Shown: positions 30,130 to 36,727, numbered from the stretch's first letter. The stretch is 64,000 nt of DNA from Candidatus Hydrogenedentota bacterium (GCA_016182605.1 JACPGE010000122.1:124001-188000); one strand, 5' to 3'. Notes: generated by a model not told the origin, from the sequence alone. Numbers and translations are program-made.

Positions 30130-31230
30130 TTAGTTTGACAGGGCGTACATGTTTGGGAGTTTGTCTTCGAAGAGGATGATGGGATGGGCGTGGAATTTGC
30201 GGAAGTCTTCTTCGCCGGGGCCTCCGGGATAGGGCACCCAGTAGTGATCCTTGCTGGCATTGCGCCAGACGAGCACGTAGGCGATTTCGCGGGCGACGGG
30301 ATCGCCCGCGAGGGGCGCCAGCAGGGCGGTGGTGTACCAGTCGGTCTGGGTGGTCTTGCTGAGTCCGTCTGGATAACCCGCTTCGGTGAGTGCGGGGACC
30401 TTGCCGCGTTCGCGGGCGAGTTCGACCAGTTGGCGGATGGGTCCGAGCGCAGCAGTCATGTCCTTGACGTAAGCGTCGAGTCCGAGTATATCGACATAGG
30501 CATCGCCTGGATATCGCGACAGGTAGGCTCCCCCGCTGCTTGGGCCGTAGGCGATGTTTGGAGAATAGGCGTAGAGGAGGTTGTGGACGCCTTTTTGATC
30601 GCGCAGGTAGTCGACGGTGAAGCGCCACAGCGCGACGTACTCTTCGGGCGTGCAGTGTTTCTTCCCCCACCAAAACCAGTTTCCCATGTGTTCGTGGAAG
30701 GGACGGAAGATGATGGGGATGTGTCCCCCGTTGCGTCCCTTGAGGGACAGGGCAAAGGCGGCGATGGCGTCCAGTGATGTTTTGTAGTGGTCGTGCTTAT
30801 CGCCGCCGGGAAGGATGGCCGCGACTGCTGGTGTGGTGTCGTAGAAGTTTTCGCCGGTCACGGGGTTGTACATGTGCCAACTGAAGGTGTTGATTCCTCC
30901 GCGCTGGTAGGCCTCTGAGACCAGGCTGCGGAAGCGCTCCAACTTCTCTGGTGTGCCTGCTTCGACCAATTCGAAGAAGTCCCATCCGTAGACGGCGGGA
31001 TAGGCTCCGGTGACGGATTTGACGTCGGACCTTCCGGGATCGCCCTGCCAGCCGATGCCGTAGGCGGTGGTCTCCTGATGGCCGAAGAGAATATGGTCTT
31101 TGGCGATAGCTTTCAGGTGTGTGTAGAGTGCGCGCGTTTCGGGCTCGGCGTTGGCGCCGGTCAGGGTGTCGCTTGCAGCGGCAAGGCTACTCAGGAGGAG
31201 CGCGAGGGACAGGATGAATGCGCGTGGCAT
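30130..31230 (-). CDS. GH26 family beta-mannanase-like glycoside hydrolase
   Basis: The protein has 366 residues with a signal peptide (MPRAFILSLALLLSSLAAA). GH26 hallmarks are ILFGHQETTAYG near the N-terminus, the acid/base Glu in RPFHEHMGNWFWWG and the nucleophile Glu in PALTEAGY. These enzymes cut beta-1,4-mannans, or beta-1,3 or mixed-linkage chains in some members, in the periplasm or outside the cell. The ATG at 31230 has GGAG upstream and exposes the signal peptide; the frame to 31320 is rejected. It is separated from the DUF1080 gene by 220 bases on the same strand, consistent with a plant- or algal-polysaccharide role. Confidence 0.92.
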   Translation of the reverse strand: MPRAFILSLALLLSSLAAASDTLTGANAEPETRALYTHLKAIAKDHILFGHQETTAYGIGWQGDPGRSDVKSVTGAYPAVYGWDFFELVEAGTPEKLERFRSLVSEAYQRGGINTFSWHMYNPVTGENFYDTTPAVAAILPGGDKHDHYKTSLDAIAAFALSLKGRNGGHIPIIFRPFHEHMGNWFWWGKKHCTPEEYVALWRFTVDYLRDQKGVHNLLYAYSPNIAYGPSSGGAYLSRYPGDAYVDILGLDAYVKDMTAALGPIRQLVELARERGKVPALTEAGYPDGLSKTTQTDWYTTALLAPLAGDPVAREIAYVLVWRNASKDHYWVPYPGGPGEEDFRKFHAHPIILFEDKLPNMYALSN

Positions 31231-31382
31231 GGAAAGGTTCTCCGGACCAAGTGGGCAGATTTCGTGGATGTGTGGGGATGAGATGGGTGTGTTGTACGCT
31301 GGTCTGGAAGAACTATTCAAGCGTGCGGGTGCGGCGGCGGGGGTGCGTGACGGCGGGGTGTGGGGTCTGCTTGCATGTGCAC

Positions 31383-31455
31383 GGGTACAGTCCCAGCCGG
31401 TAATGGTTTTTGTATCCAGTTTGACGGCTGGATTGCCGGCAGGTACGGTCCCCTT
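31383..31455 (+). repeat. Dispersed nested-hairpin repeat, copy 3
   Basis: This copy is the same length as the one at 596-668 with roughly nine base differences. The inner stem is kept by a G-T wobble (ATCCAGT with GCTGGAT), which suggests selection on structure. The outer arm is weakened (CAGCCGG instead of CTGCCGG). Confidence 0.78.
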
Positions 31456-31467
31456 CGATATGTGTCC

Positions 31468-31535
31468 GGGTCCCTGCCGGGGATGGTTTCTGTATCCAGT
31501 TCGACGACTGGATGGCCGGCAGGTACGGTCCCCTT
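31468..31535 (+). repeat. Dispersed nested-hairpin repeat, copy 4
   Basis: This copy begins gggtccctgccgg and ends ggtacggtcccctt, in tandem with copy 3. Both the outer (CCTGCCGG/CCGGCAGG) and inner (ATCCAGT/ACTGGAT) stems are intact. Confidence 0.78.
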
Positions 31536-31552: not shown

Positions 31553-32365
31553 TTAATCGAGGGTGGCGAGGAATTTCATGAGTGCGGTACGTTCTGGGCC
31601 GGTGAGGCGGGTGAAGGCGTCGGCGGGCATGAGGGAGTTGGGGCTTTCCACGAGTTCCTGGAGGTCTTTCTTGAAGTAGGTGGTCCAGAGGTCGCCGGTC
31701 TCGTTGAGGAGTTGCAGGGTCTCGGGGGTTTCGTTGCGGTAGCGGGCCTGGACGCGGCGTCCGCCGGGGAGGATGGCCGTTTTGGTTCCGTAGCCTTCGG
31801 TGATGGTTTTGGAGGGTTCGGTGAGGGCTTCACGGAGTTCTTCGGCGCGCATGCGGAGGGCGAGTTGATCCATGCTGGGTCCGATCGTGCCGCCACGCAG
31901 GAACACGGAGTGGCATGTGGCGCATCCGGCTGCGCCCTCGAACAGCCGTTGTCCCTCGGTGGTGTGGGCGGCATCTGTGGCTGCGGTGCCCGTCGTTGCG
32001 GTGTCCGTCGCTGGGGCGTCTTCAGCGCCGGTGCCTTCGAGCGCGCCCATGCCCTGCAAGATGCGCACGTGGGCGACTACTCCCTTCAGTTCCTCTTTGC
32101 CCAGGGTGGAGAAGGACATCATGCCTTTTTCTGGCCGGCCTTCGAGGATGATCTTCTCCATATCGGCGCCGGACATGGAACGTGCCACGGGGGTGAGCAG
32201 GTTCTTGCCGAAGGGGCTGCCCTTTCCCGCGGGTCCGTGGCAGACGGCGCAGAAGAGCTGGAAGACCCGTTCGCCGGAGAGGGGTGCGCCTTCCTGGGCC
32301 CGGGCAGGCGCCATGCCGGTCATCAGTACGAGGAGTAGAATCGGTAGCGTTTTCCGCGGCGTCAT
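31553..32365 (-). CDS. Periplasmic diheme c-type cytochrome of the PQQ dehydrogenase operon
   Basis: The protein has 270 residues with a signal peptide ending near APARA. Two heme-binding motifs are present: CAVCH (about residue 39) and CATCH (about residue 149), in two cytochrome c domains joined by an Ala/Thr-rich linker. A methionine ligand is plausible in GMMSFSTL for the first domain. It is the last gene of a coupled operon, overlapping its upstream neighbour by 4 bases, and is the probable electron acceptor of the quinoprotein, comparable in position and role to XoxG. Confidence 0.9.
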   Translation of the reverse strand: MTPRKTLPILLLVLMTGMAPARAQEGAPLSGERVFQLFCAVCHGPAGKGSPFGKNLLTPVARSMSGADMEKIILEGRPEKGMMSFSTLGKEELKGVVAHVRILQGMGALEGTGAEDAPATDTATTGTAATDAAHTTEGQRLFEGAAGCATCHSVFLRGGTIGPSMDQLALRMRAEELREALTEPSKTITEGYGTKTAILPGGRRVQARYRNETPETLQLLNETGDLWTTYFKKDLQELVESPNSLMPADAFTRLTGPERTALMKFLATLD

Positions 32366-33162
32366 TCGGTGCGATCCTCCAGGTCAACGGGATCCAGACA
32401 GGTCATGTTGTAGCGTGCAAAGACTTGTTTGAGAACGCCGCTGGCCAGCAGCGCGTCCACGGCTTCGTTGACGCGCTTCAGTTGCGCTGCGTCGTCCTTT
32501 CGCACGGCGACGGCGAGATTCCAGCGCATCCCTTCGAAATCCGGCATGACTGCCTGGACGGCGAGCCGATCGCGGTAGCGGGGATCGTTTCCGATGATCC
32601 ATTCCACGTTGCCCCATGCGACGCCAAACTCCAGCGCGCCCTTCAGCAGGCCGTCGAGTATGGCGGCCTGAGTGGGGCGGGCATCCACCACGAAGCCATC
32701 GTCCCACAGGCGCAACCCGGCCACGGAGCCCGTCTCGACGCCGACCTTGCTCAGGCCCATGGCCTTCAGATCGGGCAGGGCACTGTGTCCGCGCGCCGTG
32801 ACGACGCGATATCCCGCGGAGGCGAAGGGTTTGGAATAGGCGACGCGGTTCCCCACGCGCTGCTCGTCTTCGACGGTGCGAGGCTCCACGGGTACCCCGA
32901 CGACCACATCGATTGTAGCGTCCTCTTCCAGGAGCGGGCTGAGGACGCCGGTGTCTTCCGTGTCCGCCCAATGCGGGATCAACTCCGCCCCCATGGAGAC
33001 GGCGATCAACTGCGCGATATCCACGTAGAGCCCCGGCAAGCTGGCGGTCCGGCTGGAATAGGGGAGATTGTCCTGGTCGAAGAGTGCGTTTATCGAGCCG
33101 GCCTGCGCGCCAAGCGGTGCGAGCATGCACCAGACGGTTCCTGCTGCGAGGCGCGCGATCAT
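32362..33162 (-). CDS. Periplasmic solute-binding protein, XoxJ-like
   Basis: The protein has 266 residues with a signal peptide (cleavage near APLGAQA). The SBP_bac_3-type fold is suggested by LPGLYVDIAQLIAVSMGAEL, IDVVVGVPVEPRT and GVLKQVFARYN. Binding proteins of this kind are found between quinoprotein dehydrogenase and cytochrome genes (XoxJ/MxaJ) and are thought to help dehydrogenase maturation or activation rather than transport. No ABC permease is nearby, which supports that reading. It overlaps the dehydrogenase and the cytochrome by 4 bases each (ATGA junctions). Confidence 0.87.
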   Translation of the reverse strand: MIARLAAGTVWCMLAPLGAQAGSINALFDQDNLPYSSRTASLPGLYVDIAQLIAVSMGAELIPHWADTEDTGVLSPLLEEDATIDVVVGVPVEPRTVEDEQRVGNRVAYSKPFASAGYRVVTARGHSALPDLKAMGLSKVGVETGSVAGLRLWDDGFVVDARPTQAAILDGLLKGALEFGVAWGNVEWIIGNDPRYRDRLAVQAVMPDFEGMRWNLAVAVRKDDAAQLKRVNEAVDALLASGVLKQVFARYNMTCLDPVDLEDRTE

Positions 33163-34847
33163 GGCTGCACCTTTTTCGGCGGGAAGATATCGGGCAGGCT
33201 GAAGAGGATGTACGCCGAGCCGCCCAGTGTCTGGCTGATGCCCACGATCTCCGCGGGCTGTCCCCAGCCGGAGGCGATGCCGATGTATTGTTGCCCGTCG
33301 AGCACGAAACTGGTGGGTGGCGCGAAGATGCCGCTTCCGGTGTAGTACTCCCAGAGCACCGTGCCGGTTTCGTCGTCGAAGGCGCGCAGGTAGCCGTCGG
33401 GAGAACCGCCGAAGACGAGGCCGCCGCCCGTGGCGAGCATACCGCCCCAGTTGGGTCCGCCGGGGGTCTGGTAGGTCCATTGGATTTCGCCGGTGCGCAC
33501 ATCGACGGCTTTGATGTAGCCCTCGGCATCTTCGGGATCTTCGAGGACCATGGCGCCGCCGTAGTAGGGCAAACCGCGGCGGAAGACGACCTCCATTTGA
33601 ATGTAGGTGGCGCAGCGCTCCATGTCGGGAAGGTAGATGAGGTGGGTCTTGGGGCTGTAGGCCGCGGGGGGCCAGTTTTTTCCGCCGAAGATGCCCGGGC
33701 ACACCTGGTATTGGCCCGACTTGCGCGCTTCCTCTTTGATATAGGGTTTGCCGTTCTCGTCGAAGCCGGCCCAGGTGACTTTGGTGTAGGGCTTGGCATA
33801 GAGGAAGGCGCCGTTCGTGCGGTTCAGGGCGTAGAGGAATCCGTTGCGATTCACCTGGACCACCGCCTTGGTGTCGATGCCGTTGATATACTCGTCGATC
33901 ACCATGGCCTCGCTGGCGCCATCGAGATCGAAGATATCGTGGGGGGTGGCCTGAAAGTGCCATTGCAGGGCGCCGGTATCCGCGTTGAGGGCGACGATGG
34001 CATTGCTGTAGAGGTTGTCGCCTTTGCGCACGTCGCCATTGAAATCGGGGGAAGGATTGCCGACGCCCCAGAAGATCACGTTCTGATCCGGGTCATAGGT
34101 GCCCGTGATCCAGGCGGGCGCGCCGCCTGTTTTCCAGGAGTCCCCCTCCCACGTTTCGTTGCCGGGCTCGCCTTCGCCCGGGACCGTGTTAAAGCGCCAC
34201 ACCCGCTCGCCGGTGTCCACGTGGTATGCATCGATGAACCCGCGAATCCCGTATTCGCCTCCGGCCACACCGGTGATGACCAGGTCCTTCACGATGAGGG
34301 GCGCAGAGGTGAGCGCATAACTTTCGCGGTAGTCCGCCACGGTGCGATCCCAGAGCTGGAGCCCGGTGTCCGCGTCGAAACACATGAGGTGGGCATCGAG
34401 GGTTGTCCAGTAAACGTGGTTGCCATGGGCGGCGACGCCCCGGTTCACGGGACCGCAACAGAGGTTTACGGTTGGCAAGATGTGGTCATAACGCCAGAGG
34501 GTCTGTCCGGTGCGCGCGTTCACACAGATGAGGTGGCTGTTGGGGGTGGTGATGAAGAGTTTTTCATCGAACATGAGGGCGGTAACTTCGAAGCCCCCGC
34601 CGAGTACGCCGGTCTGATGGATCCACTGGGGGGCAAGGAGGGCGACGTTTTCCCGGTTGATGGTATCGGTGGGCACGTAGCGCCATGCGCCGTAGTTCCT
34701 GCCGTAGTGGACCCAGCGATCGGGCTTCTCCTGCGCCTGGAGGAGGTCCTCCTGGCTGACGCCCGGTCCTGCGCCTGCGCGCCCGGCACCCAATACAGTC
34801 ACAGCCAACACCAGTAGCGCGGCCCAAAACCCTTGGCGCAAATTCAT
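33159..34847 (-). CDS. PQQ-dependent alcohol dehydrogenase with lanthanide-type active site
   Basis: The protein has 562 residues with a signal peptide and an eight-bladed quinoprotein propeller. Conserved active-site features are the adjacent cysteines Cys130-Cys131 (LCCGPVNRG), Glu198 in GGEYGIRGF, Asn264 in GNPSPDFNGD, and Asp307 in PHDIFDLDG. The residue two after the catalytic Asp is also Asp (Asp309). This matches the extra aspartate of lanthanide-dependent XoxF/ExaF/PedH enzymes (usually D-Y-D) and not the Ala or Ser of calcium enzymes. It is somewhat shorter than XoxF (about 600). No C-terminal heme domain is fused; the separate cytochrome serves. The substrate alcohol is unknown. The start at 34847 exposes the signal peptide. 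Confidence 0.92.
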   Translation of the reverse strand: MNLRQGFWAALLVLAVTVLGAGRAGAGPGVSQEDLLQAQEKPDRWVHYGRNYGAWRYVPTDTINRENVALLAPQWIHQTGVLGGGFEVTALMFDEKLFITTPNSHLICVNARTGQTLWRYDHILPTVNLCCGPVNRGVAAHGNHVYWTTLDAHLMCFDADTGLQLWDRTVADYRESYALTSAPLIVKDLVITGVAGGEYGIRGFIDAYHVDTGERVWRFNTVPGEGEPGNETWEGDSWKTGGAPAWITGTYDPDQNVIFWGVGNPSPDFNGDVRKGDNLYSNAIVALNADTGALQWHFQATPHDIFDLDGASEAMVIDEYINGIDTKAVVQVNRNGFLYALNRTNGAFLYAKPYTKVTWAGFDENGKPYIKEEARKSGQYQVCPGIFGGKNWPPAAYSPKTHLIYLPDMERCATYIQMEVVFRRGLPYYGGAMVLEDPEDAEGYIKAVDVRTGEIQWTYQTPGGPNWGGMLATGGGLVFGGSPDGYLRAFDDETGTVLWEYYTGSGIFAPPTSFVLDGQQYIGIASGWGQPAEIVGISQTLGGSAYILFSLPDIFPPKKVQP

Positions 34848-35032
34848 GCCACTACCTGCTCCGTCTGTCCTTCCCAACCCAAAGCCTCCGACGGCGGCAC
34901 TGCACTGGCACGCCGTTGATAAGCCCACAACAGGGTAACGGGTTCGCTTCACCTTGTCCACCAGTTTTTTCGGGCTTGTCCAGCGTGGTATCGTGGGGAG
35001 CGATTACCACTCTTGCAGTCGAGGCAACCCCG

Positions 35033-36727
35033 ATGAATTTTCCAATCCGAAGTGGCCTGTTCTTGATAATAGCGGTGGCGCATTTTGCGTCGTCCCAGCA
35101 GGCCACACCGCTGTTTGGAGCGCATGGCATGGCGGTTTCCGCTTCGCGCCAGGCCTCGGAGACGGGCGTGGCGATACTGAATCAGGAGGGGAATGCGTTT
35201 GATGCGGCGGCCGCGATGGGCTTTGTGCTTGCGGTGACGCATCCCCAGGCGGGCAATCTGGGCGGGGGCGGCTTTCTTGTGGCGCGCACGGCGGAGGGCG
35301 CGCTGCTTTCCCTCGATTTCCGGGAAACGGCGCCGGCCAAAGCGCACCAGGACCTCTTCCTCGGTCCTGACGGCGAACCCGATCCAGAGCGATCGCTGCA
35401 CTCCCCGCTGGCGTCTGGCGTGCCGGGCAGCGTTGATGGCCTGCTTCAGCTCTGGGAGCGGCACGGTTCCGGGAACATCACGCGGTATGCGCTGATGGGC
35501 GACGCGATACGCCTGGCCCGCGAGGGATTCCCGCTCACACCGGGGCTTGCGGCGGACCTGAATGGCAAGGCCGAGACCTTTGCGCGCAACCCGGCGCGGG
35601 AGGTCTTTGTTCGCGAGGACGGCCGGCCCTGGCAGGCGGGCGACGTATTGATTCAGCAGGATCTTGCGCTGACGCTGGGGGCGATTGCCGCAGAGGGGCG
35701 CGAGGGCTTTTATGCGGGGCGCGTGGCGCGCTTTATTGCGGAACAGCAGGCCGCCACGGGGGGACTTATCACGCTGGAGGATCTCGCGGGTTACCGCACG
35801 GTCTACCGCGAGCCGGTGCGCGGCGCCTTTCACGATTATGAAATAGTGACGATGGGGCCGCCGAGTTCCGGGGGCGTGCTCCTTTTGCAGATGCTGAACA
35901 TGCTGGAAGAGCATGATCTCCAGGGATTGGGCTGGGGATCCTCCGCGTATATCCACCTGCTCACGGAGGTGCAACGGCGGGCGTATGCCGATCGATCGCG
36001 CTATCTGGGCGATCCCGAATTCTGGCCGGTGCCGCTGGCGGCGCTGTTGTCCAAGGATTACGCCCGCGGCCGGGCGAGGAGCATCGATCCGCTTCATGCG
36101 ACGAAGAGCAGCGACATTGCGCCGGGACTGGAGGCAGCGCGGGAGAGCCCGGAGACCACGCACTACACGGTGGCGGACCAGGATCGGAACGTGGTGGCGG
36201 TAACGACGACGTTAAACGCGAGTTTTGGATCCGGGATTGTGATAGCAGGCGCGGGCTTCCTGATGAACAATGAAATGGACGATTTCTCGGCGAAGCCGGG
36301 TGCGCCGAACCGGTATGGCCTGGTGGGGGGCGAGGCCAACGCGATCAAGCCGGGGAAGCGCATGCTCAGTTCCATGACCCCGACCATCGTGCTGAAGTCG
36401 GGCAAGCCACATCTGGTACTCGGATCGCCGGGCGGCTCGACGATTATTACGACGGTGCTTCAGAATTTTCTCAATGTGACGGTGTGGGGGATGAACATCC
36501 AGGAGGCGGTCTCTGCGCCGCGCCACCACAGCCAATGGCTTCCGGACGAGATTGTTGCGGAGCCGCGATCCATCAATGCGGACACCTGGCGCAATCTGGA
36601 GTCCATGGGTCACCGGCTGGTGCAGCGGGAGGGCGCGATTGGCCAGACCAACGCCATCCATATCACCGAAGAGGGGCTGTATGGCGCGCCCGATCCTCGG
36701 GGCGACAACGCAGCGGCGGGCTACTGA
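35033..36727 (+). CDS. ggt: Gamma-glutamyltransferase
   Basis: The protein has 564 residues, typical of bacterial GGT. The signal peptide is MNFPIRSGLFLIIAVAHFAS. The precursor is predicted to self-cleave before the catalytic Thr in ETTHYTVADQD. Other motifs are NAFDAAAAMGFVLAVTHPQAG, DFRETAP, SGVPGSVDG, GPPSSGG and SSMTPTIVLK, which carries the Ser-Ser of the oxyanion region. It transfers or hydrolyses the gamma-glutamyl group of glutathione and related peptides in the periplasm. It is divergent from the PQQ operon across 185 bases. Confidence 0.96.
   Translation: MNFPIRSGLFLIIAVAHFASSQQATPLFGAHGMAVSASRQASETGVAILNQEGNAFDAAAAMGFVLAVTHPQAGNLGGGGFLVARTAEGALLSLDFRETAPAKAHQDLFLGPDGEPDPERSLHSPLASGVPGSVDGLLQLWERHGSGNITRYALMGDAIRLAREGFPLTPGLAADLNGKAETFARNPAREVFVREDGRPWQAGDVLIQQDLALTLGAIAAEGREGFYAGRVARFIAEQQAATGGLITLEDLAGYRTVYREPVRGAFHDYEIVTMGPPSSGGVLLLQMLNMLEEHDLQGLGWGSSAYIHLLTEVQRRAYADRSRYLGDPEFWPVPLAALLSKDYARGRARSIDPLHATKSSDIAPGLEAARESPETTHYTVADQDRNVVAVTTTLNASFGSGIVIAGAGFLMNNEMDDFSAKPGAPNRYGLVGGEANAIKPGKRMLSSMTPTIVLKSGKPHLVLGSPGGSTIITTVLQNFLNVTVWGMNIQEAVSAPRHHSQWLPDEIVAEPRSINADTWRNLESMGHRLVQREGAIGQTNAIHITEEGLYGAPDPRGDNAAAGY

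What the first reader, a model, noticed from the sequence alone, without database searches (positions are those of the whole stretch)
31553..34847. Compact quinoprotein operon with a lanthanide-type aspartate
The PQQ dehydrogenase has Asp307-Leu-Asp309 where calcium enzymes have Ala or Ser in the last position. The extra Asp is the accepted mark of lanthanide-dependent enzymes (D-Y-D). Together with a XoxJ-like and a XoxG-like gene, all with ATGA overlaps, this is an XoxF-J-G-like unit in a polysaccharide-degrading, non-methylotroph-like context, with Leu replacing Tyr.
Basis: partly seen in the sequence, partly recalled or inferred. Interest (0 to 1): 0.66.

Follow-up and report, generated by a model that had tools for sequence, protein, structure and literature searches.

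The report
Non-XoxF quinoprotein operon, lanthanide-type metal site
A bacterium of the phylum Hydrogenedentota carries three overlapping genes for a periplasmic alcohol-oxidising enzyme that probably uses a rare-earth metal, its helper and its electron acceptor; the set resembles but does not belong to the known methanol (XoxF) systems, and its genome cannot make the PQQ cofactor the enzyme should need.

Summary
Three minus-strand genes (34847-31553) joined by two ATGA overlaps encode a PQQ dehydrogenase, a periplasmic binding protein and a c-type cytochrome, all with apparent signal peptides. Asp309 aligns with the lanthanide aspartate of PedH and XoxF. In a 29-sequence alignment Glu198, Asn264, Asp307 and Asp309 are invariant. 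'Leu for Tyr' means little: relatives have Leu, Trp, His, Tyr or Phe there.

The XoxF-J-G reading is only partly right. The enzyme is not XoxF. It falls in a separate, supported clade (Hydrogenedentota, Poribacteria, Verrucomicrobia, Gammaproteobacteria, Myxococcota) whose nearest characterised relative is lanthanide-dependent PedH. The binding protein is a distant MoxJ/XoxJ relative, far below the family cut-off. The cytochrome is not XoxG: it has two hemes and a TIGR02603 domain, conserved across the clade.

The genome (97.9% complete) has no pqqB, pqqC, pqqE or fae, yet five other quinoprotein-like genes. Eleven of 16 clade genomes lack pqqB. Scavenged PQQ, a known strategy, is the likely answer.

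Most likely a lanthanide-preferring, non-methylotrophic alcohol dehydrogenase. Metal and substrate are untested. D-x-D is common in PQQ dehydrogenases and also occurs in Ca/Mg-active glucose dehydrogenase, so it predicts but does not prove the metal.

The parts
33159..34847 (-). PQQ-dependent alcohol dehydrogenase of TIGR03075 type, 562 aa, apparent signal peptide. Metal ligands Glu198, Asn264, Asp307, Asp309; vicinal Cys130-Cys131; Arg136; Trp238; Arg334
32362..33162 (-). Periplasmic substrate-binding protein (PF00497), distant MoxJ/XoxJ relative, 266 aa; proposed maturation helper. ATGA overlap with the dehydrogenase gene
31553..32365 (-). Diheme c-type cytochrome (two CxxCH; C-terminal TIGR02603 heme-binding domain), 270 aa; proposed electron acceptor. 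ATGA overlap with the binding-protein gene
33921..33938 (-). Codons 304-309 (Asp-Ile-Phe-Asp-Leu-Asp) holding the catalytic Asp307 and the extra lanthanide-type Asp309
   Evidence: translation; alignment

Best explanation
A compact periplasmic alcohol-oxidation module. The dehydrogenase is a type I PQQ enzyme of a clade separate from XoxF and from PedH. It binds PQQ above Trp238 and beside the Cys130-Cys131 disulfide. A metal, most likely a light lanthanide(III), is held by Glu198, Asn264, Asp307 and Asp309. Asp307 takes the proton from an alcohol, hydride goes to PQQ, and electrons leave one at a time to the co-encoded diheme cytochrome and then to the respiratory chain. The MoxJ/XoxJ-like binding protein probably helps load PQQ and metal into the apoenzyme. 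The organism cannot make PQQ, so it must obtain it from neighbours. The substrate is probably a multi-carbon alcohol or sugar-derived alcohol rather than methanol. Shown: gene order, overlaps, homology, residue identities, conservation, absence of pqq genes. Inferred: the metal, the substrate, the direction of electron flow, the helper role and PQQ scavenging.
For: All active-site residues of known PQQ alcohol dehydrogenases are present and aligned. The four metal-ligand residues are invariant in 29 sequences, and every row of the clade but one keeps D-x-D. The closest solved structure by sequence and by fold is lanthanide-dependent PedH (6zcv, whole-sequence E 2.1e-123; TM 0.87, model pLDDT 84.9). 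The dehydrogenase-binding protein-diheme cytochrome order recurs in two other Hydrogenedentota (one contig ends inside the binding protein), Poribacteria and a Verrucomicrobium; Gammaproteobacteria keep dehydrogenase-cytochrome. The operon's binding protein is the only TIGR03871 match in the own genome, as are its counterparts in G025 and G026. In the Verrucomicrobial relative pqqB and pqqC lie on the same contig as the triad, about 2 kb beyond its cytochrome, which ties this clade to PQQ. Literature: the aspartate is essential for lanthanide binding in XoxF types and PQQ-ADH 2b (PMC11996626); XoxJ/PedG-type proteins are proposed to help insert PQQ and metal (PMC12997753); PQQ scavenging is widespread in non-producers (PMC12124388).
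Against: No assayed member of this clade was found. pqqB, pqqC and pqqE are missing from the own genome and pqqB from 10 other clade genomes. The single Plug-domain TonB receptor of the own genome is close to the TOL_0244 family and not recognisably a PQQ or lanthanide importer. Membrane glucose dehydrogenase also has D-x-D yet works with Ca, Mg, Zn or Sr (PMC11996626). The pLDDT is low (<50) at residues 235-237 next to the PQQ-floor Trp.
Confidence: 0.6

Rival explanations
1. Metal-promiscuous or calcium/magnesium enzyme: Asp309 is ancestral in the superfamily and does not enforce lanthanide use, as in membrane glucose dehydrogenase.
For: D-x-D is present throughout the surrounding clades and in the glucose-dehydrogenase-like proteins of the same genome (HHDLWDYD). 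m-GDH has the motif and uses Ca, Mg, Zn or Sr (PMC11996626). No lanthanide-uptake receptor was recognised.
Against: Nearest characterised relative by sequence and fold is lanthanide-dependent PedH. In the alcohol dehydrogenase branch the motif has so far gone with lanthanide dependence (PMC11996626).
Confidence: 0.25
2. An 'empty' quinoprotein: a PQQ-dehydrogenase relative in an organism without PQQ that has lost the cofactor and does something else.
For: No pqqB/C/E in the genome; 11 of 16 clade genomes lack pqqB; the second NCBIfam match is TIGR04528, 'acido-empty-quinoprotein' (418 bits, below its cut-off of 650).
Against: All PQQ- and metal-binding residues are kept, the metal ligands invariant. 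The TIGR03075 score passes its cut-off. Five clade genomes do have pqqB, one of them close to the triad. The co-conserved cytochrome and MoxJ-like protein fit a working dehydrogenase.
Confidence: 0.11
3. A true XoxF methanol dehydrogenase unit (XoxF-XoxJ-XoxG) in an unrecognised methylotroph.
For: Gene composition resembles XoxF5 F-G-J units (Sagittula); D-x-D motif.
Against: Outside the XoxF branch with full support; cytochrome not XoxG and binding protein far below the MoxJ_2 cut-off; no fae; no pqq genes.
Confidence: 0.04

Closest known systems
PedH/ExaF (PQQ-ADH type 2b), e.g. Pseudomonas putida KT2440 PedH, PDB 6zcv/6zcw
   Same: Fold (TM 0.87), metal and PQQ residues, D-x-D; nearest characterised branch; ped/exa clusters also carry a cytochrome and a MoxJ-like protein
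   Different: 38% identity (structural alignment), separate supported clade, shorter loop before TWEGDSW, extra Asp after GNPSP, diheme TIGR02603 cytochrome as partner
XoxF with XoxJ and XoxG (e.g. XoxF5 unit of Sagittula, L128)
   Same: Three-part idea: dehydrogenase, binding protein, cytochrome; D-x-D
   Different: Enzyme about 34% identical and on another branch; XoxJ and XoxG models not met; gene order F-J-c instead of F-G-J
Acidobacterial PQQ-ADH relatives of TIGR03075 (most of L043-L109) and TIGR04528 'empty quinoproteins'
   Same: About 43-46% identity, D-x-D, often a neighbouring related cytochrome gene
   Different: Cytochrome gene lies upstream, no binding protein seen; TIGR04528 cut-off not met by the window protein nor by the relatives tested
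Membrane glucose dehydrogenase family (TIGR03074)
   Same: Beta-propeller, D-x-D-like motif; relatives present in the same genome; E. coli member works with scavenged PQQ
   Different: About 27% identity, no vicinal Cys pair in the same place, cut-off not met (196 against 833 bits)

Membership tests
PQQ-dependent methanol/ethanol-family dehydrogenase (TIGR03075) | Whole-protein score over curated cut-off | tested here: met
   546 against 480 bits
PQQ-dependent methanol/ethanol-family dehydrogenase (TIGR03075) | Glu, Asn, Asp metal/catalytic residues, vicinal Cys pair, Arg/Lys over PQQ | tested here: met
Lanthanide-dependent PQQ alcohol dehydrogenase | Extra Asp two residues after the catalytic Asp (D-x-D) | tested here: met
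   Asp307/Asp309 align with PedH and XoxF
Lanthanide-dependent PQQ alcohol dehydrogenase | Activity needs a lanthanide, not calcium | not testable with these tools
   needs enzyme assay
XoxF methanol dehydrogenase | Falls in the XoxF branch | tested here: not met
   XoxF rows form their own 100/100 branch; window in another. XoxF3 references were not available for the tree
XoxG cytochrome cL | Matches TIGR03874 over cut-off, monoheme | tested here: not met
   32 against 162 bits; two CxxCH; control XoxG 234 bits
XoxJ/MoxJ (TIGR03871) | Score over cut-off | tested here: not met
   40 against 212 bits, but best family hit in all clade members scanned (40-74 bits); control XoxJ 288 bits
PedH/ExaF (type 2b) | Falls in the PedH branch | tested here: not met
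   PedH plus three plasmid sequences form a separate 100/100 group
Acido-empty-quinoprotein (TIGR04528) | Score over cut-off | tested here: not met
   418 against 650 bits
PQQ producer | pqqB, pqqC, pqqE in the genome | tested here: not met
   none over cut-off in a 97.9% complete genome

The most novel reading that the evidence does not exclude
A distinct clade of lanthanide-dependent alcohol dehydrogenases, spread over several phyla, that works mainly in PQQ non-producers, so that both metal and cofactor are scavenged, and that passes electrons to a diheme cytochrome family not known as a partner of PQQ dehydrogenases, in bacteria not known to use rare earths.
Probability: 0.35. Interest if true: 0.55.

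Novelty: new variant of a known kind. Interest (0 to 1): 0.36.

Why it matters
If the metal assignment holds, lanthanide biochemistry extends to Hydrogenedentota and Poribacteria, outside methylotrophy, with an electron acceptor different from XoxG/PedF. The clade is also a clean test of whether PQQ scavengers use lanthanide enzymes, since most of its genomes lack pqq genes. The broader point, that D-x-D enzymes are diverse and mostly not XoxF, has already been published (PMC11996626).

Tried and rejected
XoxF membership: rejected by tree and partner families. 'Leu for Tyr' as a special feature: rejected, position x varies freely. Looking for a PQQ importer: the only Plug-domain TonB receptor (G000:C110, L138) best fits TOL_0244 (635 bits, cut-off 645) and the colicin I/enterobactin receptors, so no support. 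An attempt to obtain XoxF3 references with the SolV XoxF sequence brought cytochrome-carrying acidobacterial enzymes and the same Verrucomicrobial relative, not XoxF3. Literature on PQQ enzymes or lanthanides in Hydrogenedentota: nothing relevant. Lanmodulin and lanthanophore genes were not searched.

Full report
Observation. The dehydrogenase runs 34847-33159, the binding protein 33162-32362 and the cytochrome 32365-31553, all on the minus strand. Both junctions read ATGA. Each protein begins with a hydrophobic leader, so all three are expected in the periplasm (from the sequence). The dehydrogenase passes the TIGR03075 cut-off (546 against 480 bits) and matches PF01011. A longer reading frame from a GTG at 34961 exists; the ATG at 34847 directly precedes the leader.

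Active site. In an alignment with PedH (6zcv), XoxF of strain SolV (4mae) and a quinohemoprotein ADH (1kv9), the window protein has Cys130-Cys131, Arg136, Glu198, Trp238, Asn264, Asp307, Asp309 and Arg334 at the expected places. Asp309 falls on the lanthanide aspartate of PedH and XoxF, and on Thr in 1kv9. Among 29 homologues Glu198, Asn264, Asp307 and Asp309 are all invariant. The residue between the two Asp is Leu in the window and in G025, Trp in G026 and Poribacteria, His in Gammaproteobacteria, and mostly Tyr or Trp elsewhere. The motif is therefore D-x-D, as the literature writes it (PMC11996626), and the Leu carries no message. One relative (L038, Myxococcota) has D-W-S and has also lost the Cys pair.

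Placement. A maximum-likelihood tree puts the window protein in a group of 15 (support 99/93) with Hydrogenedentota G025 and G026, Gammaproteobacteria, Myxococcota, Poribacteria and a Verrucomicrobium. XoxF sequences form a separate 100/100 branch, PedH-type sequences another 100/100 branch, and the heme-carrying ADHs a third. A second tree with other rows gave the same picture. A limitation is that no certified XoxF3 or MxaF reference was in the tree. The phylum is Hydrogenedentota: the same-order genome G025 contains a locus identical in the encoded protein to L087, a record titled Candidatus Hydrogenedentota. Only 3 of 68 genomes of the phylum have a relative in this clade, and the Gammaproteobacterial sequences nest inside the Hydrogenedentota ones, which suggests horizontal transfer. 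An AlphaFold model (pLDDT 84.9, pTM 0.87) has PedH as its best solved match (TM 0.87).

The partners. The dehydrogenase-binding protein-cytochrome order is conserved in G026, in G025 (whose contig ends inside the binding protein), in five Poribacteria contigs and in the Verrucomicrobium, where the binding protein is doubled. Gammaproteobacteria and the Myxococcota member have dehydrogenase-cytochrome only. The cytochrome has two CxxCH motifs in all 15 sequences aligned and carries the TIGR02603 domain over cut-off. The XoxG model gives 32 bits against a cut-off of 162, while the annotated XoxG-type cytochrome of Sagittula gives 234. The binding protein's best NCBIfam match is TIGR03871 (quinoprotein-associated MoxJ-like) in every clade member scanned, at 40-74 bits against a cut-off of 212; the Sagittula XoxJ-type protein gives 288. 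It shares the D-x-x-NLPYS start seen across the clade, and it is the only TIGR03871 match in the own genome, as are its counterparts in G025 and G026. So it sits in the place of XoxJ without being an accepted member of that family. XoxJ and the related PedG are thought to bind partly folded apoenzyme and help insert PQQ and metal (PMC12997753, PMC7391723).

Cofactor supply. The own genome is 97.9% complete and has no pqqE over cut-off, no pqqC and no pqqB. The same searches found all three in G025 and pqqB and pqqC in G024, so the method works in this phylum. Over 16 genomes of the clade, pqqB passes its cut-off in five (G025, G068, G071, G076, G079) and is missing in eleven, including all four Poribacteria tested; pqqC agrees broadly. 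Several of these are metagenome bins of unstated completeness, so single absences are weak, but the pattern over many bins is not. In the Verrucomicrobium pqqB and pqqC lie on the same contig, about 2 kb beyond the cytochrome gene, which supports real PQQ use in the clade. The own genome also has five glucose-dehydrogenase-like proteins, none over the TIGR03074 cut-off. Organisms with quinoproteins and no PQQ synthesis are common and import PQQ, in E. coli through PqqU (PMC12124388). The own genome's only Plug-domain TonB receptor is not recognisably PqqU, so the route of entry is open. No fae gene was found, which fits a non-methylotroph.

Mechanism and confidence. I take the module to be a periplasmic alcohol dehydrogenase with scavenged PQQ and probably a light lanthanide, helped by the MoxJ-like protein and oxidised by the diheme cytochrome. 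Lanthanide dependence rests on Asp309 and on kinship with PedH. The main doubt is that the same motif occurs in membrane glucose dehydrogenase, which works with Ca, Mg, Zn or Sr (PMC11996626). The main alternative cofactor view, an empty quinoprotein, is weakened by the full set of conserved binding residues.

Verdict. The label XoxF-J-G is wrong as membership and fair as a rough analogy. The find is a new variant of a known kind: D-x-D enzymes outside XoxF have been described in large numbers, but this clade has a different cytochrome partner and mostly sits in PQQ non-producers.

Noticed in passing
window 31390-31455 and 31470-31535; also near 600-730: Tandem pair of a 66-nt intergenic repeat at 80-nt spacing (GTATCCAGTT...GGCCGGCAGGTACGGTCCCCTT) just downstream of the operon; related copies at another window site and at eight other places in the genome. 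A dispersed repeat family of unknown nature.
   Followed up: partly
G000, contigs C102, C95, C126 (two) and C51 (L115-L119): Five further glucose-dehydrogenase-like quinoprotein genes, one of 1190 aa, in a genome without pqqB/C/E.
   Followed up: partly
G079:C103:41808-49507 (overlaps locus L042): Verrucomicrobial relative with pqqB, pqqC, two tandem MoxJ-like genes, a diheme cytochrome and the dehydrogenase on one contig; the pqqC match spans one in-frame TAG.
   Followed up: partly
L038:1-1884 and 1754-2674: Myxococcota member of the clade with D-W-S instead of D-x-D and without the vicinal Cys pair; a natural counter-example for the metal prediction.
   Followed up: no
L044, L045: Gene order dehydrogenase - MoxJ-like protein - dehydrogenase in marine proteobacteria, another non-XoxF use of the MoxJ-like partner.
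   Followed up: no
L138:5007-7109 (-), G000:C110: The only Plug-domain TonB receptor found in this 6.8-Mb genome, TOL_0244-like, just under its cut-off.
   Followed up: partly
window 34916-36727 (+) and 30130-31320 (-): A gamma-glutamyltransferase-like gene diverges from the operon start; a beta-mannanase-like gene lies downstream (from reading the translations).
   Followed up: no
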